From assembly GCF_025056915.1 (NCBI RefSeq), contig NZ_JANWVH010000029.1:1-32841 (forward strand): 32,841 bases of DNA, read 5' to 3'. Of the stretch, positions 20,054 to 28,368 are shown piece by piece (within the stretch, counting starts at the first letter, position 1; every line of letters begins with the position of its first letter). Both the position numbers and the translations under genes were made by a program. The DNA comes from Meiothermus sp. Lineage in GTDB: Bacteria > Deinococcota > Deinococci > Deinococcales > Thermaceae. Below the pieces are notes generated by a model. It worked only from the letters and a program-made list of their open reading frames with translations, did no database searches and had not been told where the DNA came from.

Positions 20054-20845
20054 TCAAAGCCCCGGTGACTGGAACTGCCCCACCATTACCAGTACCCAGC
20101 GCAGCCCCACCGCTCCGGCCAGGCCCAGGGCCGCTGCCCAGCGGGGGTTGCGGAAGAGCAGGGCGGCTACCGCGATGAGCAATCCTGCCAGGGCGTATCC
20201 CAGCAAGCCTTCGTGCAACAGGTGCGTACGGGCGGCTTCGGGTAGCGTGAAGGGATAGGCCACCAGCAAGCCCAGACTGAGCACGGCGGCCCAGCTTTCC
20301 CAGCGCCTGGCCCATTCGCTGCCCAGGAGCAACGCCACCGCCAGCACCATCAAAAGGGCGGTGATGGGGAAGAGGAAGAGCATCATGCTGTTCCACAGGG
20401 GCCGGGTGGTGTTGACGGCCAGCGCAAAGCCGGGGTAGGCCAGGGCCACCAGGCTGCCCAGCAGGAGGAGCAGGCCGGGTAGTTGCTCAGGAATGCGCCG
20501 CAGGAAGCCCACCCAGGGCTTCAGCACAACAGCCAGTGTGGCCACCAGAGAAAGGGCCAGCCCCCAGGCTCCCCACCAGATGGGTGCGCTGGGGTGCAGG
20601 CCCAAAAAGAGCCAGACATGGCTAAAGCGCCAGCGGGCGGGCGACTCGGCCCAGAGCACGAACAGGTCGAGCACAATCAGCAACGCTGCCAGCCACAAGT
20701 AGCGGTTGCGCTCCGGGTGCTGCCGCAGGGTCAGGATGGCTGCCAGCAGGGCCATCCCGCCCGCCAGTCCCACCAGCACAAAGTGCAGGGCATTGGTCCA
20801 GTGCCAGAACTCGCCGGTGTTGGGCAAGCTGTAAAACTCAGTCAT
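20054..20845 (-). CDS. psrC: Polysulfide reductase membrane subunit (NrfD family)
   Basis: PsrC is the quinol-oxidising membrane anchor of the Psr complex. The 263 residues are almost wholly hydrophobic, with about eight helices. The first carries the NrfD-type WHWTNALHFVLVGLAGGMALL (14-34), which holds residues near the quinone site in Thermus PsrC. Later segments include SPARWRFSHVWLFLGLHPSAPIWWGAW (about 68-94) and NTTRPLWNSMMLF. Length and order match the Thermus thermophilus PsrABC set whose structure is known. Its start overlaps the psrB stop by 8 nt (ATGACTGA), so the two are translationally coupled. Confidence 0.9.
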   Translation of the reverse strand: MTEFYSLPNTGEFWHWTNALHFVLVGLAGGMALLAAILTLRQHPERNRYLWLAALLIVLDLFVLWAESPARWRFSHVWLFLGLHPSAPIWWGAWGLALSLVATLAVVLKPWVGFLRRIPEQLPGLLLLLGSLVALAYPGFALAVNTTRPLWNSMMLFLFPITALLMVLAVALLLGSEWARRWESWAAVLSLGLLVAYPFTLPEAARTHLLHEGLLGYALAGLLIAVAALLFRNPRWAAALGLAGAVGLRWVLVMVGQFQSPGL

Positions 20846-21422
20846 GGCGGGTCACCTCCTGGGTGAGCCCTTTTTTGCTGGGGGCGTTCAGATAGATTAC
20901 TTTGGGCCGGGTGCCCATCTCGGGCCGCAGTACGTCCTGGCGACCGGCAGCCTTCAGGGTTTTGGAGATTTCGCTGTTGGGGTCGTCGAGGTCGCCGAAG
21001 ACCCGCGCATAGGTGGGGCAGGTCTCCACGCAGGCGGGTTGTTGGCCCTTGGCGATGCGGTGGCTGCAGAAGGTGCACTTATCGGCGTAACCTTTTTTGT
21101 TGATGTAGCGGGCATCGTAAGGGCAGGCCGCCACACAGGCCCCGCAGGCAATGCACTTGTTGTAGTCCACCTGTACCAACCCATCTGGGGTCTGGTAGCT
21201 GGCCCCCGTAGGGCAGACCGGTACGCAGGGGGGGTTCTCGCAGTGGTTGCACTGCTCGGGCCGAAACTCCACGGTAAGGTTGGGGAAGGTGCCCACCTCG
21301 CGTTCGCGAATCCAGAGCCGGCTGGCCCCAGCGGGCACCTGGTTTTCCATCTTGCAGGCCACGGCACACGCTGCACAGCCCACACAGGCTGAAAGGTCAA
21401 TCAGCATTCCCAGACGTGCCAT
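20838..21422 (-). CDS. psrB: Polysulfide reductase iron-sulfur subunit (four [4Fe-4S] clusters)
   Basis: PsrB carries electrons from PsrC to the molybdenum site. Its 194 residues contain 16 Cys in ferredoxin patterns: CVGCAACAVAC (13-23), CNHCENPPCVPVC (58-70), CIACGACVAACPYDAR (about 90-105) and CTFC with CVETCPTYARVFGD further on. This is typical of the DmsB/NrfC/PsrB family with four cubane clusters. There is no signal peptide; it would be exported with the Tat-signal-bearing PsrA. Its ATG directly follows the psrA TAG (TAGATG), with GGAGGG upstream inside psrA. Confidence 0.93.
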   Translation of the reverse strand: MARLGMLIDLSACVGCAACAVACKMENQVPAGASRLWIREREVGTFPNLTVEFRPEQCNHCENPPCVPVCPTGASYQTPDGLVQVDYNKCIACGACVAACPYDARYINKKGYADKCTFCSHRIAKGQQPACVETCPTYARVFGDLDDPNSEISKTLKAAGRQDVLRPEMGTRPKVIYLNAPSKKGLTQEVTRHD

Positions 21423-23720
21423 CTAGGCCCTCCTTTCCTTCAGGATCTGCACCACGCTCTTGAGCCTGGGGGCGGGGGCTTTTTCCAGCTTCACGTAGTT
21501 GTTGCGGAGGCCCGCCCCACCCGAGATGGGGTCCAGCGTGTAGCGGGTCTGGAGGTAGCTGTCCGAGGCCCCGCGCCCGTTGGCCAGGCTCATGCCTTTG
21601 GCTTTGTGGCCGAAGCCGTGGGTGATGTAGACCGCGTCCTTGCGGATGCGCTGGGTTGCCTTGACCCGCACCGGCCCTTCGCGTACCCCGTCCTGATTGA
21701 CCAGGTAGGCATAATCGCCGGCCTTGAAGCCAAGCCGCTGGGCCTCTTCGGCGTTGAGCCAGACGCTGTTGGAGGGCTCCATCTCCATGAGCACCGGGTT
21801 GTTCTGGGTACGGGCGAAGGTGTGCACCGGGCTGCGCCCATAGAGCAGGCGGTAGAAGCCTTCTGGGGCTGCTTCGGGGGGCTCGTACACCGGTAGGGGG
21901 TCGAAACCGGCCTTGGCCAGAGCCTCGGAGTAAAGTTCAATCTTGCCGGAGAGGGTGCCAAAGGGCAGGGTGTTTTCCTTCTCCCAGTCGGTGAGCCAGG
22001 GCTTGCCGTTTTGCACCATGGTACCCATCTGCTTCATGGTCTCGAGGTCGAGCCCCACCGATTGCAACCGGGTATCGAGATACTCCTCGATGTCCTTCCA
22101 GGGGAAGAACTGTTCTAGGCCCAGCCGCTTGCCCAGCTCTTTGGCAATCCACCAGCCGGGCTTGGTGTCCCACAAGGGTTCGTGGGCGGGCATGCGAAGC
22201 TCTATGAAGGGGGTTTTGTGTGCCACCGCCACCAGGTCGTCGTAGCGCTCGAGGTAGGTGGCCTCGGGCAGGATCACATCGGCCCACATCACGTGCTCTT
22301 GAGGCAATACGTCAATTGCCACGTACAAGTCGAGCTTGCTCAGGGCCTCCTTGGTGCGGGGCACGTTTGGGATGGCGTGGAACAGGTTGATGCCGTAGGC
22401 GAAAAGCCCCTGGATGGGGTAAGGCTTGCCCGTAATCATGGGCTCAATGAGTTCCTGGATGGCAGTGGACTTAGCCAGGAACTTGCCCTTGTCGGCCCTG
22501 GGTTTGTAGCCCTCAGGCTCGCTCTCGGCCTTGGCCGGGCCCGAGCAGCCCCCGGCGTTGGGCTCGAGCGGCAGCGGGGGGGTGGGGTACTTCTCCAGGT
22601 ATGGTGGCATGGCAATGTAGAAACCGCCCTCGCGCCCGTAGTTGCCCAGAAGTGCGTTCAGGATGTACAAAGCTCGCATCCGCTGGGTGTCGTTGCCGTA
22701 CCAGACGGTGTGTCGGGTGGGGGGCAGCACCGCTTTGGGTTTGTGGCGGGCCATTTCGCGGGCCACCTCGCGGATGACCTGGGCCGGAATCTCGGTCTCC
22801 TTCTCGGCCCACTCGGGGGTGTAGGGCTTGACATGGGCCGCAAGTTGCTCGAAGCCCACCGTGTACTTCTGAACGTAGGCCTTGTCGTAGAGGTTTTCGG
22901 CAATGAGCACGTGCATCCAGGCCAGCAGCAGGGCGGTGTCGGTGCCCGGCTTGATGGGCAGCCAGCGGTCGGCCTTGGCGGCGGCAGTGGAGAAGCGCGG
23001 ATCCACCACCACCAGTTTGGCCCCGTTTTTGCGAGCCTGACTCCAATCCTGCAACTGGGTGTTGTGGGTGTCCTCGCCGATGTGGTGCCCGATCAGGACG
23101 ATGTAGCGGGTGTTGGGCCAGTCTATGGGCTCGTGCCCGCCGATGGCCCGGCCAAAGGTATACTGGGCTGCCACCTCGCGGGGGGCCGTGCACAGCGAGA
23201 CCGAGGGCTTGGCGGCGTTGGGGCTGCCCCAGGCGGCGGGCAAAAAGTCCACAAACCAGCCGTCGCCGGTGCCGTGCCCGAAGAAAGCGATGCTCTCAGG
23301 GCCGTACTGTTCTTTGAGGCTCAGCATCTTCTTGGCGATATAGTCCAGGGCCTCTTCCCAGGTGGCCTCGCGGTACTGGCCCGCACCCCGCTCACTGCCC
23401 TCCACCCGGATCAGGGGCTTTTTGAGCCGGTCGGGGTCGTAGGTCTGGGCGGGTGCGCCCTGCCCGCGGGGGCAGAGCATGCCCCGGCTTTTGGGGTTTT
23501 CCTTGTAACCCTCGACCTTGTAGACCCGGTTGCCTACCACGCTGGCCTTAATGCCGCAGCGCCAGAAGCAGTTTTCGCAGATGCTAAAAACCTGCCGAAC
23601 CTCCTGGGTGTACCAGGGGGCAGCCTTGGCGCGGCTGACCAGGGTGGCCGCTCCGCCCACACTCACGGCCCCGACGGCGGCTGCCGAGAGTTTAAGGAAG
23701 CTGCGCCGCTCTAGTTTCAC
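21423..23720 (-). CDS. psrA: Polysulfide/thiosulfate reductase catalytic subunit (molybdopterin)
   Basis: PsrA reduces polysulfide (or thiosulfate) to hydrogen sulfide on the outer face of the membrane at a bis-molybdopterin-guanine-dinucleotide centre. Residues 1-33 are a Tat signal (RRSFLKLSAAAVGAVSVGGA). A [4Fe-4S] cluster is held by Cys48-x2-Cys51-x3-Cys55-x27-Cys83. The molybdenum ligand is Cys177 in SVSLCTAPREVA. The cofactor-binding domain near the C-terminus has NAEEAQRLGFKAGDYAYLV. The 765 residues agree with the Thermus enzyme as I recall it. Thiosulfate reductase (PhsA) is the main alternative, since both share the fold and the Cys ligand. The first 29 nt overlap the end of torD. 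Confidence 0.92.
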   Translation of the reverse strand: MKLERRSFLKLSAAAVGAVSVGGAATLVSRAKAAPWYTQEVRQVFSICENCFWRCGIKASVVGNRVYKVEGYKENPKSRGMLCPRGQGAPAQTYDPDRLKKPLIRVEGSERGAGQYREATWEEALDYIAKKMLSLKEQYGPESIAFFGHGTGDGWFVDFLPAAWGSPNAAKPSVSLCTAPREVAAQYTFGRAIGGHEPIDWPNTRYIVLIGHHIGEDTHNTQLQDWSQARKNGAKLVVVDPRFSTAAAKADRWLPIKPGTDTALLLAWMHVLIAENLYDKAYVQKYTVGFEQLAAHVKPYTPEWAEKETEIPAQVIREVAREMARHKPKAVLPPTRHTVWYGNDTQRMRALYILNALLGNYGREGGFYIAMPPYLEKYPTPPLPLEPNAGGCSGPAKAESEPEGYKPRADKGKFLAKSTAIQELIEPMITGKPYPIQGLFAYGINLFHAIPNVPRTKEALSKLDLYVAIDVLPQEHVMWADVILPEATYLERYDDLVAVAHKTPFIELRMPAHEPLWDTKPGWWIAKELGKRLGLEQFFPWKDIEEYLDTRLQSVGLDLETMKQMGTMVQNGKPWLTDWEKENTLPFGTLSGKIELYSEALAKAGFDPLPVYEPPEAAPEGFYRLLYGRSPVHTFARTQNNPVLMEMEPSNSVWLNAEEAQRLGFKAGDYAYLVNQDGVREGPVRVKATQRIRKDAVYITHGFGHKAKGMSLANGRGASDSYLQTRYTLDPISGGAGLRNNYVKLEKAPAPRLKSVVQILKERRA

Positions 23721-24240
23721 CGTTGACCTCCTCCAGAACTTTGCTCAGAAAAACCGCGATGCTGCTGTAGAAGCCGGTGGGGTCGGCCTCTTGCAGCACC
23801 GGGGCATAGCGCTTTAGCCAGGGATACAGGTACTCCAGCGCCAGCGTGCGGGCCAGCTCGGGTTTTTCCCCGAGCAGCGCAATGGCCTCCCCAACAGCGG
23901 CCAGGTGGTCGGGCAGGTCGCGCCAGTCGGGCGAGACCTCGAGGCCCGCCAATCGGTACAGTGCCATCAAGCGTTCAAAGCCCAGGCCGAAGAGCCGCTC
24001 GTCCAGCGCCATGCCGACATAGGGAGGGCAGGGCAGCCCGGCGGGGTTGCTCACAAACAGTGAGGTGTGGGCTATTTGAAGCGCCCTCAAGTCGGTTTTG
24101 GGTAGTTTGGGGGGTGCCAGGCCGTAGGTCTTGGCCATCTCGTCCAGGGCGGCCTGCAATGTGCCCGCGAGTAGGTCTTGCTCGAGGGCGGCCTTTGGGG
24201 GTGCAAAGGCCGCGGCGGTAACCCAGCCCAAGAGTTGCAT
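23692..24240 (-). CDS. TorD-family molybdoenzyme chaperone
   Basis: TorD/DmsD-type chaperones bind the Tat signal and the apo-form of a molybdoenzyme until the cofactor is inserted. This 182-residue all-helical protein has the family pattern with HTSLFVSNPAGLPCPPY (about 58-74), an SPDWRDLPDHLAAVGEAIALL segment (the E/D-x-x-D-H signature, about 102-122) and LARTLALEYLYPWL. It is the first gene of the psr operon and overlaps psrA by 29 nt, so PsrA is its evident client. AGGAGG lies 7 nt before the ATG. Confidence 0.88.
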   Translation of the reverse strand: MQLLGWVTAAAFAPPKAALEQDLLAGTLQAALDEMAKTYGLAPPKLPKTDLRALQIAHTSLFVSNPAGLPCPPYVGMALDERLFGLGFERLMALYRLAGLEVSPDWRDLPDHLAAVGEAIALLGEKPELARTLALEYLYPWLKRYAPVLQEADPTGFYSSIAVFLSKVLEEVNGETRAAQLP

Positions 24241-24257
24241 ATTTACCTCCTAGTCCT

Positions 24258-24324
24258 ACCCTAAGTTCAGGCGGGATGTCCTGGGTCAGGGGCTCTCCTA
24301 CACAGTTGTCGGAAGATTTCCTAC
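24258..24324 (-). promoter_or_regulatory. torD-psrABC promoter with GTAGGA/TCCGAC operator half-sites
   Basis: On the minus strand, in order, are GTAGGA (24324-24319), 5 nt, then TCCGAC-N6-GTAGGA (an imperfect 18-bp inverted repeat, 24313-24296), 6 nt, CTGACC, 20 nt, TAGGGT (24263-24258), 17 nt, ATG. Every spacing up to the -10 box is identical to that of the rhodanese gene promoter. The inverted repeat would be centred near -53, a typical activator position. The adjacent NarL-type regulator is the obvious candidate binder; this is inference. Confidence 0.65.
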
Positions 24325-24348
24325 AAAAACCCCCTCGGGTGAGGGGGT
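24324..24348 (-). terminator. Rho-independent terminator of the rhodanese gene
   Basis: On the minus strand a perfect 8-bp stem ACCCCCTC/GAGGGGGT with a 4-nt loop is followed by TTTTTG. It lies just after the rhodanese stop and ends where the psr operator begins, so the two genes are separate transcripts packed end to end. Confidence 0.8.
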
Positions 24349-24368
24349 CGTGGAAAGCTGGGAAAAGC

Positions 24369-24803
24369 CTATTCCTTGACCACAGGGAAGTTGGCCGCCA
24401 CCCAGGCTTTGTAGCCACCCATGATGCTCTTGACGTTGTAGCCCTGGCCCCGCAGGAACACCACCGCCATGGCGCCCCGGTGCCCGATGCCGCAGTAGAC
24501 CAGGATGGGCTTGTCCTTGGGCAGGCTGGTGATTTTGGCGGGCAGGTCGCGGATGGGAATGTTCACCGCGCCCGCAAGGAAGCCTTCCTTGTATTCGTTA
24601 GGCTCACGCACATCCAGCAGGAAGGGCTTGATGGCATCAATCTGGGCCTTGGCCGCCGGGGGTTGTACCCCGTAGAAGTCGGTGGGCAGTGCGGTAAGGA
24701 AGTTGCCGACCTCGCGGATGGTCAGGGCCGAGAAGTTGGTGGAAGAAGCCAGCACCGGAACCAGGGCCAGAAGCACGACCAGCATGAGCTTGTGGGTTTT
24801 CAT
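24369..24803 (-). CDS. Exported single-domain rhodanese (sulfurtransferase)
   Basis: The protein has a signal peptide (1-20, hydrophobic LMLVVLLALVPVLA) and then one rhodanese domain: PFLLDVREPNEYKEGFLAGAVNIP (60-83), the active loop VYCGIGHRGA with Cys104 as sulfur carrier, and GYNVKSIMGGYKAWVAANFP. The 144 residues are complete for a single-domain form. Outside the cytoplasm and next to the psr operon, it could deliver or hold polysulfide sulfur for PsrA, as the unrelated-by-context Sud protein of Wolinella does; that role is inferred. AGGAGG lies 8 nt before the ATG. Its promoter matches the psr promoter in layout. Confidence 0.9.
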   Translation of the reverse strand: MKTHKLMLVVLLALVPVLASSTNFSALTIREVGNFLTALPTDFYGVQPPAAKAQIDAIKPFLLDVREPNEYKEGFLAGAVNIPIRDLPAKITSLPKDKPILVYCGIGHRGAMAVVFLRGQGYNVKSIMGGYKAWVAANFPVVKE

Positions 24804-24821
24804 CTCTAACCTCCTGGCCTC

Positions 24822-24888
24822 AGGCTAAAAGAAGGGGCTGCTGCCGGGGTCAGGGAAGGTCTGACAGCTTCGTCAGAAAAATTCCTAC
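24822..24888 (-). promoter_or_regulatory. Rhodanese gene promoter with GTAGGA/TCTGAC operator half-sites
   Basis: On the minus strand are GTAGGA (24888-24883), 5 nt, then the perfect inverted repeat TCTGACGAAGCTGTCAGA (24877-24860), 6 nt, CTGACC, 20 nt, TAGCCT (24827-24822), 18 nt, ATG. The first half-site overlaps the end of the response-regulator gene. The match to the torD promoter in all spacings makes a shared regulator likely. Confidence 0.65.
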
Positions 24889-25499
24889 ACCAAGCCATGC
24901 TCCCGCGCCCACTGCACCAGCTCGGGCTGGGAGGCCAGGCCCAGTTTGTCCAGGGCGCGGGCTTTGTAGGTAGCGACGGTCTTGACCGAGATGCCCAGCT
25001 TTTCGGCGGCCTGGCTCAGGTTGTAGCCCTGGGCCAGCAGACCGACCACGGCACGCTCCCGCTCCGAAAGGGCCTCGAGGCTGGGCAGGCTGATGTGTTC
25101 GGCCAGACGGGGGGCCAGCAGGGGATGCAAGAAGCGCTCCCCCCGGGCGATGGCCGTTACAGCATCCAGCAAGTCCCGATCTACGGCCCGCTTGGGCAGG
25201 TAGCCACTGGCCCCCCGCGCAAAAGCTTCGGCGATGTACTCGGGCTCCTCGTGCATGGAAAGCACCAGCACCTTACCGTAGGTTTTCAGGATGGGCAGGG
25301 CCTCGAGGCCGGGCATCCCCCCCAGGTTGAGGTCGAGAATGAAAAGCCCCGGCCAATCTTGAAGGGCGGTGCTCTTGCACCAGGCCAGGGCTTCCTCGGC
25401 CCGCCCAAACTCGGCAACTACGGTGTGTTCAACGGACTCCAGCAAGAGCCGCAGCCCGGTGCGGATGAGGGCATGGTCTTCAACTAGAACAATCTTCAT
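24885..25499 (-). CDS. NarL/FixJ-type response regulator
   Basis: Residues 1-120 form a receiver domain with the acidic pocket VEDHA (6-10), phospho-acceptor Asp56 in LFILDLNL, the conserved switch Ser in VLSMHEE and Lys in GYLPKRA. Residues about 138-200 are a LuxR-type helix-turn-helix (LSERERAVVGLLAQGYNLSQ, then AAEKLGISVKTVATYKARAL). The 204 residues are typical. Its start overlaps the sensor-kinase stop by 4 nt (ATGA), so they form one operon. Lying between the kinase and the sulfur genes, it is the best candidate to activate the psr and rhodanese promoters. Confidence 0.93.
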   Translation of the reverse strand: MKIVLVEDHALIRTGLRLLLESVEHTVVAEFGRAEEALAWCKSTALQDWPGLFILDLNLGGMPGLEALPILKTYGKVLVLSMHEEPEYIAEAFARGASGYLPKRAVDRDLLDAVTAIARGERFLHPLLAPRLAEHISLPSLEALSERERAVVGLLAQGYNLSQAAEKLGISVKTVATYKARALDKLGLASQPELVQWAREHGLV

Positions 25500-26548
25500 A
25501 ACGGCAGCACAAAACCGATGCGGGTGCCCTGGCCGGGGCTGCTCTCCACGCTCAGGCTGCCCCCCAGCAGTTCCACCCGCTCGCGCATGCCCACCAGGCC
25601 CACCGAGGTCGGGGTGCGGGCGGGGTCGAACCCCTGCCCATCGTCGGTGATGAGCCCCCGCACCCGTTTGTCCCAGGCCGAAAGGCCCACGTACACCCGG
25701 CGGGCCCTAGCATGGCGGGCGGTGTTGGTCAGGGCCTCCTGGATAACCCGGAAGATGGCAATCTGCTGGCTTTCCCGCAGTTGGGGGCACTCGATCTCGC
25801 TCTCGACCTTCAGGCCGGTGCGCTCCTGGTACTCATGCAGGTAGCGCTCGAGGGCCCTGGCCAGCCCCAGGTCGTCGAGCACGGCGGGGCGCAGCTCGCG
25901 GGAGAGGCGGCGTACCTCCTCCAGGGCCTGAACCACGGCCTTGCGGGCCTCGCCCAAATACTCAGGCCGCTTTTCGGTAATCTGCAAGGCCAGGAGCGCT
26001 GCGGTAAGCTGGCTGCCCACTTCGTCGTGCAGCTCGCGCCCCACCCGGCGGCGCTCTTCCTCCTGGGCAAAAAGGAGCTGATGAATCAGGGTGTTGCGCT
26101 GGGCCTCGCGCCCCCGCAAATGTGCGGCCTCCTGGGAGCGGGACAGCCCCAGTGCGACCACGGCAGCCCCCAGGCTCAAAAAAGCCTCTTCATGCGGCAG
26201 GGGATGGTCTTGCAGGTGAAGCACATACACCCCGTACACCTGGGCCCCGCTCCACAGCGGCAGGGCCACCACCCGTTCTTGCCAGGCGGGCTGGCGGGTC
26301 TGGGCGGCGGTCTGGGCCAGCCCCCTCGAGACCTGGCCCAGGGGGCAGTCCAACTTGCAGTTTTGCAGGTGCTCGAGTTCTGCCTGGCCCTGCCGCACGC
26401 GGTAGATCTCGCCACAACGGGCCTCCAGATGTCTACGCAAAACCTCGAGGCCTGCCCGGAGCAGACCGTCTTCATGCGTACCCTGGGCCGCCGTCTGGGC
26501 CAGCTCGCTCAGGGCCGTACACCAGGGTTCGTTGGCAGGTGCCAGCAT
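25496..26548 (-). CDS. Soluble HisKA_3-type sensor histidine kinase with GAF-like input domain
   Basis: No membrane segments are seen, so the signal is sensed in the cytoplasm. Residues about 10-135 look like a GAF domain and contain a Cys64-x3-Cys68 pair (CKLDC) plus Cys10 and Cys45, a possible redox or metal site. A coiled region leads to the phospho-acceptor His174 in RELHDEVGSQL, then the HATPase domain with QEALTNTARHARA (N box), DDGQGFDP and VGLVGMRERVELLGG. The 350 residues are complete. NreB/NarX-like kinases are the closest type. TAAGCT lies 7 nt before the ATG, with a palindrome CAAACGTTTG upstream. Confidence 0.92.
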   Translation of the reverse strand: MLAPANEPWCTALSELAQTAAQGTHEDGLLRAGLEVLRRHLEARCGEIYRVRQGQAELEHLQNCKLDCPLGQVSRGLAQTAAQTRQPAWQERVVALPLWSGAQVYGVYVLHLQDHPLPHEEAFLSLGAAVVALGLSRSQEAAHLRGREAQRNTLIHQLLFAQEEERRRVGRELHDEVGSQLTAALLALQITEKRPEYLGEARKAVVQALEEVRRLSRELRPAVLDDLGLARALERYLHEYQERTGLKVESEIECPQLRESQQIAIFRVIQEALTNTARHARARRVYVGLSAWDKRVRGLITDDGQGFDPARTPTSVGLVGMRERVELLGGSLSVESSPGQGTRIGFVLPL

Positions 26549-26555
26549 GGACTCA

Positions 26556-26583
26556 AGCTTAGCCTGTGCCCTTCAAACGTTTG
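26556..26583 (-). promoter_or_regulatory. Kinase-regulator operon promoter: TAAGCT box and CAAACGTTTG palindrome
   Basis: TAAGCT (26561-26556) is 7 nt before the kinase ATG. The perfect 10-bp palindrome CAAACGTTTG (26574-26583) is 12 bp further upstream, over the place of a -35 box, where a regulator could block or help polymerase. The binder is unknown. Confidence 0.4.
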
Positions 26584-26591
26584 TCCCTCCC

Positions 26592-27059
26592 TCAGAGCGG
26601 CAGCTCGGTGGTGCTCTTGGACTGCCGCAGCACCGCACTGGAAATGACCGCACTCAGGCCGGGAATGGCCGTGAGGTGGTCGAGCAAAAACTTCTGAAAG
26701 TCGTGCAGGTCGGCCACCATAATCTTGAGCAGAAAATCGTCCTCTCCCATCACCACATGGCACTCGGTGACCTCGGGGTATTTGAGCACCTCCTGCTCGA
26801 AGCGCTCCACATCGGCCCGGCTCTTGTGGTCGAGCTTGACCCGCACAAACACGCACAGGCTGCGCCCCACCTTTTCCGCGTCCAGCAAGGCCACATAGCC
26901 CCGAATTACCCCCAGCGCCTCCAGCCGCCGCACCCGGCGCAGGCAGGTCGAAGGGGAGAGGTTGACCAGCTCGGCCAGCTCGTTGTTGGGGATGTTGCCG
27001 CGGCTTTGCAGGATGTTCAGAATTTTGCGGTCTTTCTTGTCCAGTTCAACGGATGCCAT
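26592..27059 (-). CDS. Lrp/AsnC-family transcriptional regulator
   Basis: Residues 5-65 form the Lrp helix-turn-helix (LDKKDRKILNILQSRGNI, then NNELAELVNLSPSTCLRRVRRLEALGVIRGY). Residues about 70-148 are the ligand-binding RAM domain (VFVRVKLDHKSRADVERFEQ, VTECHVVMGEDDFLLKIMVADLHDFQKFL). The 155 residues are full length. Family members sense amino acids as octamers. It is divergent from the PLP-dependent lyase gene, so it probably controls that gene and itself, through the TTGC repeats between them. No Shine-Dalgarno site is seen. Confidence 0.92.
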   Translation of the reverse strand: MASVELDKKDRKILNILQSRGNIPNNELAELVNLSPSTCLRRVRRLEALGVIRGYVALLDAEKVGRSLCVFVRVKLDHKSRADVERFEQEVLKYPEVTECHVVMGEDDFLLKIMVADLHDFQKFLLDHLTAIPGLSAVISSAVLRQSKSTTELPL

Positions 27060-27063
27060 AAGA

Positions 27064-27131
27064 TTGCATTATTTTATCTTTTTTTGAAATCAGGTTGCTT
27101 TATTAGGGGTTGGAATCGGCGTTATTGCACC
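27064..27131. promoter_or_regulatory. AT-rich divergent control region with TTGC repeats at 30-31 bp steps
   Basis: TTGCATTATT (27064), TTGCTTTATT (27095) and a partial TTGCAC (27125) recur every 30-31 bp, three helical turns, so the sites face the same side of DNA. This is the most AT-rich stretch in the window and lies between the Lrp gene and its divergent neighbour. It fits wrapping by an Lrp-type octamer, though that is inferred. Confidence 0.45.
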
Positions 27132-27186
27132 CACCTGCCGGGGTTGGGGTGCTATCTTGAAACCAACCCACTTCCTGAGGTTGCCT

Positions 27187-28368
27187 ATGAAAATCCGAAC
27201 CCGCGCCGTCCACGCCGGACACCATCCCGACCCCGTCACCGGCGCCCATGTGGTGCCCATCTACAGCACCTCTACCTTTGCTTACGGCTCGTTTGCTCGA
27301 GGGGAGCGGCTTTTTGCCGGGGAGGAGTCCGGCTACATCTATGGGCGCATCGGCAACCCCACTGTGCGGGCCTTCGAGGAAAAGCTGGCCAGCCTCGAGG
27401 GGGCCGAGGACGCGGTGGCCTTTGCCAGCGGGATGGCCGCCATCAGCGCCCTCTGCACCACGCTGCTGGCCCCCGGCGACGAAGTGGTGTACCTGGCTCC
27501 GCTCTACGGCGGAACCGAAGGCTATTTTCTGGAGACCCTGAGCAAGTTTGGGGTGCGCGTGACCGATGCGGGCAGTGTGGAAAACCTGCCCAAGGTGATT
27601 TCACCTTTCACCAAACTGGTCTACCTCGAGACCCCCACCAACCCCACCCTGCGCATCTACGACCTCTCGGCAGTGGCCCAGGTGGCCCGCTCCAGAGGCG
27701 TCCTGACCGTGGTGGACAATACCTTCGCCACGCCCTACCTGACCCGGCCCCTGGAGCACGGCGTGGATGTGGTGCTGCACTCGGCCACCAAGTACCTGGG
27801 GGGGCACGGCGACTGCCTGGCCGGGGTGCTGGCCGGCCCCAAGGAACTTATGGAGGCGGTGCGGGCCGAGGGGCTGCGGCATATTGGCGGCACCCTGGGG
27901 GCCTTCGAGGGCTACCTGATGCTGCGGGGCCTCAAGACCCTGCCCCTGCGCATGGAGGCCCACTGTGCGGGTGCCGCAAAGGTTGCGGAATTTCTTTCCA
28001 AGCACCCCGCCGTCCGGCGGGTGTACTATCCTGGCCTGCCCTCCCATCCAGGCCATGCAGTGGCCCGGCGGCAGATGCGGGCTTTTGGGGGGTTGGTCTC
28101 CCTTGAACTGGAATCGAAACAGGCCGCGGCCCTCTTCCTGGATAGCCTGAAGCTCTTTACCCAGGCGGTGAGCCTGGGCGATGTGGAATCGCTGGCCACC
28201 CACCCGGCCTCCACCACCCACCAGCTTCTGCCGCCCGAAATCCGGCAGGCGCATGGCGTGACCGACACCCTGGTGCGCCTTTCGGTGGGCATCGAAGACC
28301 CCGACGACCTGCTGGCCGACCTCGAGCAAGCCCTGGCGAAGGTCCTGCAGTCCAGGGTGCCCCGGTAG
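27187..28368 (+). CDS. Cys/Met metabolism PLP-dependent enzyme (methionine gamma-lyase or cystathionine gamma-lyase/synthase type)
   Basis: This gamma-family enzyme cleaves or forms carbon-sulfur bonds of methionine, homocysteine or cystathionine. Seen are YIYGRIGNPTVRAFEEKLAS (50-69), FASGMAAISAL (79-89, phosphate loop), LYGGTEGYF (106-114), VVDNTFATPYLTRPLEHGVD (175-194) and the PLP Lys202 in SATKYLGGHGD. The length of 393 is normal. The residue after the active-site YG pair is Gly, not the Cys found in the well-studied Pseudomonas methionine gamma-lyase, so that activity is not assured. TGAGG precedes the ATG by 6 nt. It is divergent from an Lrp regulator; a role in supplying or clearing thiols is likely. 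Confidence 0.87.
   Translation: MKIRTRAVHAGHHPDPVTGAHVVPIYSTSTFAYGSFARGERLFAGEESGYIYGRIGNPTVRAFEEKLASLEGAEDAVAFASGMAAISALCTTLLAPGDEVVYLAPLYGGTEGYFLETLSKFGVRVTDAGSVENLPKVISPFTKLVYLETPTNPTLRIYDLSAVAQVARSRGVLTVVDNTFATPYLTRPLEHGVDVVLHSATKYLGGHGDCLAGVLAGPKELMEAVRAEGLRHIGGTLGAFEGYLMLRGLKTLPLRMEAHCAGAAKVAEFLSKHPAVRRVYYPGLPSHPGHAVARRQMRAFGGLVSLELESKQAAALFLDSLKLFTQAVSLGDVESLATHPASTTHQLLPPEIRQAHGVTDTLVRLSVGIEDPDDLLADLEQALAKVLQSRVPR

What the first reader, a model, noticed from the sequence alone, without database searches (positions are those of the whole stretch)
24258..24888. Two promoters with identical operator architecture define a sulfur regulon
Upstream of torD-psrABC and of the rhodanese gene the order is GTAGGA, 5 nt, TCYGAC, 6 nt, GTMRGA, 6 nt, CTGACC, 20 nt, TAGNNT. 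All spacings are identical, although the bases between differ. A two-component system lies immediately upstream. The predicted operator half-site (GTAGGA/TCYGAC) does not match the NarL heptamer I know, so this may be a new regulator-site pair controlling polysulfide or thiosulfate respiration.
Basis: partly seen in the sequence, partly recalled or inferred. Interest (0 to 1): 0.75.

Follow-up and report, generated by a model that had tools for sequence, protein, structure and literature searches.

The report
Twin operators of a polysulfide-respiration switch
Two neighbouring promoters in a Meiothermus genome carry the same paired binding sites, kept by evolution beside one two-component regulator in several related genera, so this is very probably the on-switch for polysulfide respiration; it works like known switches rather than being a new kind.

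Summary
It is two 17-bp dyads, GTMRG-N7-CYGAC, 23 bp apart, centred near -65 and -42 of the predicted start.

The half-sites are selectively kept: 95% identical among six Meiothermus promoters, against 42% and 32% for the 6-nt gap and the 20-nt stretch. A profile of the element, searched in 111 genomes, gave 12 places at E<1e-3, all near an orthologue of the adjacent response regulator (9 of 12 trained it; it missed 18 of 27 regulator genomes). Ten torD promoters from genomes without the orthologue lack the element.

I conclude that this kinase/regulator pair activates the polysulfide reductase operon (orthologue of T. thermophilus PsrABC, 2VPW) and, in Meiothermus, a separate rhodanese gene. 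The 'regulon' is only these two promoters. The half-site resembles BvgA, UvrY/GacA and EvgA sites, the recognition helix fits EvgA better than NarL, and the layout is BvgA-like. The signal is untested; three invariant cysteines in the kinase suggest sulfur or redox. New regulator-site pair, known kind.

The parts
25496..26548 (-). sensor histidine kinase, no transmembrane segment, GAF-like N-terminal domain (my reading of the model) with Cys45, Cys64, Cys68; HisKA_3 + HATPase_c
   Evidence: Pfam HisKA_3 and HATPase_c, no GAF model matched; predicted fold with DesK/VraS kinase-core neighbours; Cys present in 27 of 27 and invariant in 15 of 15 homologues; hydropathy
24885..25499 (-). NarL/FixJ-family response regulator, proposed binder of the dyads
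   Evidence: Pfam Response_reg + GerE; Asp56 (presumed phosphoacceptor) and Lys103 invariant in 13 of 13; recognition helix KTVATYKAR
24872..24888 (-). rhodanese promoter, distal dyad (GTAGGAATTTTTCTGAC), centre about -65; overlaps the stop codon of the response regulator
   Evidence: conserved in G008 and G004
24849..24865 (-). rhodanese promoter, proximal dyad (GTCAGACCTTCCCTGAC), centre about -42
24822..24827 (-). predicted -10 hexamer TAGCCT of the rhodanese promoter
   Evidence: conserved A and T columns across 9 aligned promoters; no consensus sigma-70 promoter found in 24200-25000
24369..24803 (-). single-domain rhodanese, probably exported, with loop CGIGHR (presumed active site)
   Evidence: Pfam Rhodanese; hydrophobic N-terminus; sequence
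24330..24346 (-). terminator-like hairpin after rhodanese, abutting the torD operator
   Evidence: 2 such sites in the region against a mean of 1.1 in shuffles, so weak alone
24308..24324 (-). torD promoter, distal dyad (GTAGGAAATCTTCCGAC), centre about -65
   Evidence: conserved before torD in 4 genera
24285..24301 (-). torD promoter, proximal dyad (GTAGGAGAGCCCCTGAC), centre about -42
   Evidence: degenerate in the Thermus-type genus g5
24258..24263 (-). predicted -10 hexamer TAGGGT of the torD-psrABC promoter
23692..24240 (-). TorD/NarJ-family chaperone, first gene of the operon
   Evidence: Pfam Nitrate_red_del
21423..23720 (-). PsrA, molybdopterin catalytic subunit
   Evidence: best solved relative 2vpw chain A, E = 0, over residues 3-761
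20838..21422 (-). PsrB, 4Fe-4S subunit
   Evidence: Pfam Fer4 families
20054..20845 (-). PsrC, membrane quinol subunit (NrfD_2)
   Evidence: Pfam NrfD_2, 'Polysulfide reductase'

Best explanation
The element is a tandem operator of the adjacent two-component system. The soluble kinase (25496-26548) phosphorylates the response regulator (24885-25499). The regulator then binds as two dimers, one per 17-bp dyad, 23 bp (about two helical turns) apart at about -65 and -42. The proximal dimer abuts the -35 position of a promoter that has a -10 box but no consensus -35, and so recruits RNA polymerase. This switches on torD-psrABC (polysulfide or thiosulfate reductase) and, in Meiothermus, the separately placed rhodanese gene. 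Shown by sequence: the dyads, spacings, conservation and linkage. Inferred: binding by this regulator, activation rather than repression, and a sulfur or redox signal sensed through Cys45/Cys64/Cys68.
For: (1) Exact tandem at both promoters and only there in the own genome. (2) Selective conservation: half-sites 0.95 identical among six Meiothermus promoters, against 0.70 for the bases inside the dyads, 0.42 for the 6-nt gap and 0.32 for the 20-nt stretch; within each genome the two copies share 0.88-1.00 of half-sites, 0.40-0.80 of inner bases and only 0.33-0.40 of gap and 20-nt bases. (3) Same place before torD in other genera: with a half-site matrix trained on Meiothermus, the best position lies 44-47 nt before the torD start in 21 of 22 other promoters from genomes that have the regulator. 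(4) In 111 genomes, 12 of 12 profile matches at E<1e-3 lie within about 0.65 kb downstream of a regulator orthologue; 9 trained the profile, 3 did not (G041, G064, G045). (5) Outside family f3, all 25 genomes with psrA have the regulator; 11 f3 genomes have psrA without it at E<=1e-45, and none of the 10 with a scorable torD has the element at that place. (6) Recognition-helix residues K173, T174, T177, Y178, R181 are invariant in 13 of 13; E. coli EvgA shares 5 of 5, UvrY 4 of 5, NarL 1 of 5. (7) The layout matches BvgA: dimers 22 bp apart, the proximal one abutting -35 (PMC7250471, abstract and passages).
Against: No binding or expression data exist here. In the Thermus-type genus g5 the proximal dyad is degenerate: its left half scores below zero in 13 of 17 promoters (in a 14th, G069, the best place is elsewhere), and only 5 of 17 tandem scores beat all 200 shuffles. 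The profile found nothing at E<=0.01 in 18 of the 27 regulator genomes (16 of g5, G042, G019), though most of these carry the weaker element by eye or by matrix. Overall similarity does not single out EvgA: full-length identity is 69, 63 and 51 of 200 to NarL, UvrY and EvgA, and HTH identity 19, 23 and 23 of 67. The dimer pairing (GTMRG-N7-CYGAC or TCYGAC-N6-GTMRGA) is open. Six weaker profile matches (E 0.001-0.01), all in f3 genomes, were not followed; the 1e-3 cut was chosen after seeing the list, and the best of the six, 1.2e-3, lies just above it. Some f3 genomes have more distant relatives of the regulator (G034, 46%; G101, 35%). The -10 and the start site are predictions.
Confidence: 0.78

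Rival explanations
1. The dyads are bound by an unlinked transcription factor (for instance a persulfide-sensing ArsR- or CsoR-type repressor), and the two-component system next door is coincidental.
For: No binding data; palindromes of this length suit many dimeric regulators.
Against: The element was found at E<1e-3 only near the regulator orthologue in 111 genomes and is missing from the 10 scored torD promoters without it. Kinase and regulator sit just before torD (or rhodanese) in g1, g5, g12 and g18. The neighbouring AsnC gene, searched only in the loci, appears there only in g1. A position at -42 without a consensus -35 suits an activator better than a repressor.
Confidence: 0.12
2. The regulator binds but represses, or responds to oxygen, nitrate or general redox state rather than to sulfur compounds.
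For: The kinase core is of the NarX/DesK type and NarX also carries a cysteine-rich stretch ending CPRG in its middle region, so the three cysteines could hold an oxygen- or redox-sensitive cofactor. Related kinases of this order have a similar three-Cys pattern with wider final spacing (4 of 12 with a kinase match, 13 loci examined: L028, L030, L031, L087).
Against: Repression is unlikely from the layout. C-X17/18-C-X3-C is shared by 26 of 27 aligned kinases (the 27th, L007, has a shorter first loop and its genome has no psrA match), and the only targets found are sulfur genes.
Confidence: 0.35
3. The two promoters look alike because of a recent duplication or gene conversion of the promoter region, without regulatory meaning.
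For: In the loci examined of other genera the rhodanese gene follows psrC, while in Meiothermus it lies between regulator and torD, so a rearrangement copied or moved promoter DNA. Bases inside the dyads are also fairly alike between copies in G008 and G004 (0.80).
Against: Gap and 20-nt bases are at 0.33-0.40 identity between the copies while half-sites are at 0.88-1.00; the torD element is shared with g12 and g18 of another family.
Confidence: 0.03

Closest known systems
BvgA at the fha and ptx promoters (Bordetella)
   Same: NarL/FixJ-family regulator (recalled); several dimers about two helical turns apart (22 bp; here 23), the proximal one abutting the -35, which is non-consensus at ptx (PMC7250471); heptad TTTCCTA (PMC4314077) occurs exactly in the torD distal dyad.
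   Different: Two dyads here, not three or six dimers; different targets; soluble kinase instead of a membrane phosphorelay (BvgS recalled).
UvrY/SirA/GacA
   Same: Inverted repeat TGTAAG-N6-CTTACA in the same half-site orientation, and half-site TGTAGGAGA at csrB (PMC4682653); second-best NCBIfam model for the regulator (111.2 bits).
   Different: Below the family cut-off of 280 bits; spacer one base longer here; the inverted repeat lies far upstream of csrB/csrC, here the dyads abut the promoter.
EvgA (E. coli)
   Same: Recognition helix KTVSTYKSR against KTVATYKAR; K-12 emrK-evgA gap holds TTCTTACGCCTGTAGGAT; site consensus recalled, no held paper gave it.
   Different: 77.2 bits against a cut-off of 251; lowest full-length identity of the three E. 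coli regulators compared, 51 of 200; half-sites arranged the other way round about the centre in the recalled consensus.
NarX/NarL
   Same: Same broad families; kinase core aligns to NarX at E 5e-16; best solved relative of the regulator is NarL 1a04.
   Different: No NarL heptamer in either promoter; recognition helix shares 1 of 5 invariant positions; 96.5 bits against a cut-off of 250.
Thermus thermophilus PsrABC (PDB 2VPW)
   Same: PsrA orthologue over nearly the full length; PsrC in Pfam NrfD_2.
   Different: Its regulation did not turn up in my searches of the held papers.

Membership tests
NarL/FixJ-family response regulators | receiver domain plus GerE helix-turn-helix | tested here: met
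   Pfam Response_reg 70.9 bits and GerE 50.5 bits, both above cut-off
NarL (nitrate regulator, equivalog) | NCBIfam NF007935 above cut-off 250 bits | tested here: not met
   96.5 bits
NarL (nitrate regulator, equivalog) | TACYYMT/TACYNMT heptamers in target promoters (consensus recalled) | tested here: not met
   none in window 24241-24340 or 24804-24900, both strands
UvrY/SirA/GacA | NCBIfam NF007018 above cut-off 280 bits | tested here: not met
   111.2 bits
UvrY/SirA/GacA | TGTAAG-N6-CTTACA box | tested here: not met
   no exact TGTAAG in the two promoters; related half-site TGTMRG with a 7-base spacer
EvgA | NCBIfam NF007419 above cut-off 251 bits | tested here: not met
   77.2 bits
BvgA-like layout (function, not membership) | dimers about 22 bp apart, proximal one abutting -35, poor -35 | tested here: inconclusive
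   sequence layout agrees; occupancy not testable here
HisKA_3 (NarX/DesK-type) kinases | HisKA_3 and HATPase_c domains | tested here: met
   42.7 and 52.8 bits, above cut-off; DesK/VraS structural neighbours
GAF-domain sensors | GAF domain before the kinase core | tested here: inconclusive
   no GAF match in Pfam at E<=0.001; order of helices and strands in the model looks GAF-like; the 50 structural matches shown are mostly to kinase cores
Thermus-type polysulfide reductase PsrABC | full-length similarity to 2VPW PsrA and NrfD_2 membrane subunit | tested here: met
Thermus-type polysulfide reductase PsrABC | polysulfide as physiological substrate | not testable with these tools
   the deposited molecule name is 'thiosulfate reductase'; PMC3764938 calls the HB27 enzyme likely involved in polysulfide respiration (passages)

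The most novel reading that the evidence does not exclude
The kinase is a direct cytosolic polysulfide/persulfide sensor: Cys45, Cys64 and Cys68 of its GAF-like domain react with reactive sulfur or hold a sulfur-sensitive cofactor, and it drives a dedicated two-dimer promoter switch for polysulfide respiration found in at least four genera of the order.
Probability: 0.25. Interest if true: 0.7.

Novelty: new member of a known kind. Interest (0 to 1): 0.45.

Why it matters
It gives a concrete, conserved regulator-operator pair for the structurally known Thermus-type polysulfide reductase, for whose control I found no report in the held papers. It also extends the BvgA/UvrY/EvgA type of half-site and two-turn dimer spacing to the order that holds Meiothermus, and points to three invariant cysteines as a testable sulfur or redox sensor.

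Tried and rejected
A wider regulon: rejected; the third-best match in the own genome has E 0.79 (150 of 839 first-look candidates were scored, so weak sites could be missed). Paralogous two-component systems (regulator 43-51% identical; L026-L031): no 23-bp pair with at least one exact dyad. AsnC as the regulator: it had no match in the g5 and g12 loci (L023-L025); g18 was not searched for it. GntR was not pursued. A literature source for the EvgA consensus: none held, so it stays recalled. Literature on the NarX cysteine cluster: none held. Named orthologues by the search for related loci: only one close one among 25 loci, an uncultured Meiothermus MAG contig, so the other genomes are referred to by handle. 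'Meiothermus' for g1 rests on that title, since its contig has the length and match position of G004's; 'Thermus-type' for g5 is my guess from genome size; g12, g18 and f3 are unnamed. Fold comparison of the kinase gave mostly kinase-core matches in the 50 rows shown, so the sensor fold rests on the model alone. The distal element GGACATTTGCC was not explained.

Full report
What is there. On the minus strand the gene order is kinase, response regulator, rhodanese, torD, psrA, psrB, psrC. Its natural unit is a 17-bp dyad GTMRG-N7-CYGAC. Each promoter has two, 23 bp centre to centre, followed by a -10-like hexamer; with the start taken 7 nt after it, the centres fall at -65 and -42 in both. No sigma-70 consensus promoter was found in 24200-25000, so the -35 is poor. 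The rhodanese copy begins within the regulator's stop codon; the torD copy abuts the terminator-like hairpin after rhodanese. The rhodanese gene therefore appears to be its own transcription unit and torD-psrABC another.

Chance. The two-dyad core occurs in 0 of 300 simulated windows. The exact single dyad is no commoner than its control in the genome, 20 and 20 against 38 and 33, so only the paired form is informative;'s list the only pairs 23 bp apart are the two in the window.

Conservation. Regulator orthologues at E<=1e-45 are in 27 of 111 genomes of the order, psrA at E<=1e-200 in 36 of 111. Outside family f3 all 25 psrA genomes have the regulator. The two regulator genomes without psrA at that threshold are G019 (51% identical regulator, beside only weakly PsrA-like genes) and G045 (84% complete). 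Two other genomes of the genus (G008, G004) have both promoters with the same spacings. Genera g12 and g18 of another family have the tandem before torD; their rhodanese upstream regions, seen for two g12 genomes, show none. Among nine aligned promoters 14 of the 17 invariant columns fall in half-sites, one in a spacer and two in the -10. Half-sites average 0.82 identity and all other columns before the -10 0.38. Among the six Meiothermus promoters the bases inside the dyads are also fairly alike (0.70), while the gap and the 20-nt stretch are at 0.42 and 0.32.

Seventeen promoters of genus g5 (two pairs of loci, L004/L039 and L044/L045, have the same promoter sequence) keep the distal dyad as TTAGGA or CTAGGA, 5 nt, TCCGAC (14 of 17 exact in the right half) and mostly the right half of the proximal one as TCYGTC; the left half is mostly lost. 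A matrix trained on Meiothermus half-sites puts its best tandem 44-47 nt before the torD start in 24 of 25 promoters from genomes with the regulator (3 of them in the training set; in G042 torD and regulator are on different contigs). All 200 shuffles were beaten in 8 of 8 promoters outside g5 and in 5 of 17 in g5. In f3, 10 of 11 genomes had a scorable torD; none beat all shuffles and none had its best position at 44-47 nt. G034 of f3 has a 46% identical relative of the regulator elsewhere, and G101 a weakly related kinase and regulator about 3 kb from its psr operon.

A profile of nine promoters (A1, model R1) searched in 111 genomes gave 18 places at E<=0.01 (46 candidates scored per genome, stricter filters). 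The 12 below 1e-3 all lie within about 0.65 kb downstream of a regulator orthologue; nine are training members, and G041, G064 and G045 are not (G041 is nearly identical to a training member). The other six, E 0.001-0.01, are in f3 genomes and were not followed; the cut between the groups was chosen afterwards. The profile missed 18 of the 27 regulator genomes, 16 of them g5. In the own genome the next best match has E 0.79. The switch thus seems to serve two promoters in Meiothermus and one in the other genera.

The regulator and its site. Pfam places the regulator in the NarL/FixJ family; no NCBIfam equivalog among those listed reaches its cut-off (best MctR 120.7 of 300, UvrY/GacA 111.2 of 280, NarL 96.5 of 250, EvgA 77.2 of 251). 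Its recognition helix, KTVATYKAR, keeps five positions invariant in 13 of 13 orthologues; EvgA shares all five, UvrY four, NarL one. Overall identity points the other way: 69 of 200 to NarL, 63 to UvrY, 51 to EvgA. The half-site TGTMRGA resembles what is published for BvgA (PMC4314077, passages) and UvrY (PMC4682653, abstract and passages); the EvgA consensus is recalled, and a match with two mismatches lies in the K-12 emrK-evgA gap. BvgA binds as dimers 22 bp apart with the proximal one abutting -35, and its ptx and fim3 promoters have non-consensus -35 regions (PMC7250471, abstract and passages). The present layout is the same in outline. A short half-site match alone could be chance; the agreement of half-site, helix and layout is what persuades.

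The sensor. The kinase has no transmembrane segment by hydropathy. Pfam found no GAF domain. The predicted fold (mean pLDDT 83.6, pTM 0.48) has a helix-strand-strand-helix-strands order before the long helix, which I read as GAF-like. Cys45, Cys64 and Cys68 are present in 27 of 27 and invariant in 15 of 15 homologues. They sit at the start of one strand and just after its neighbour, so they may cluster; I did not measure distances. NarX has a cysteine-rich stretch of similar style. I infer a sulfur or redox signal but cannot choose.

Targets. PsrA is the orthologue of the T. thermophilus enzyme solved as 2VPW, deposited as thiosulfate reductase. PMC3764938 (passages) treats it as a likely polysulfide reductase. 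The rhodanese follows psrC in the one g5, two g12 and one g18 loci examined and in 9 of 11 f3 loci; in Meiothermus it lies between regulator and torD with its own copy of the operator. The gene moved, yet a matching operator stands in front of it: indirect evidence that the operator matters.

Verdict. The reading as a regulator-site pair is well supported; the claims of an unfamiliar half-site and of a wide sulfur regulon are not. I found no report of this pair in the held library (listings, with passages read in PMC3764938 and PMC3235269). I rate it a new member of a known kind.

Noticed in passing
26576-26587 (-), and upstream of torD in L004, L032-L047, L005, L006, L048: GGGACAAACGTT lies upstream of the kinase gene in three Meiothermus genomes, 14 nt before a TAAGCT/TAGGCT hexamer; the pattern RGGACAWACGTT has one match in the own genome. 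A related GGACATTTGCC (g5, a few variants) or AGGACAWMCGTT (g12) directly abuts the distal dyad of torD. It may be a third dimer site or a second regulator's site.
   Followed up: partly
L033, L034, L036, L037, L039-L042, L046, L004 upstream of torD: Many g5 promoters carry a further GGGACAT-N4-CCC-type inverted repeat (such as GGGACATTCTTCCC) just upstream of that element.
   Followed up: no
L028, L030, L031, L087: Related kinases of the order have a C-X17-20-C-X6/7-C pattern instead of C-X17/18-C-X3-C, suggesting a wider family of three-cysteine sensors; L030 and L031 sit near other PsrA/PsrB-like genes.
   Followed up: no
24369-24803; L023-L025, L096: The rhodanese gene changed place: after psrC in the examined loci of other genera, between regulator and torD in Meiothermus, with its own operator and terminator-like hairpin.
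   Followed up: yes
26592-28368: An AsnC/Lrp-type regulator diverges from a PLP-dependent gene of the cystathionine gamma-lyase type (name by eye, not searched) next to the kinase; in the two g1 relatives this pair keeps its place.
   Followed up: no
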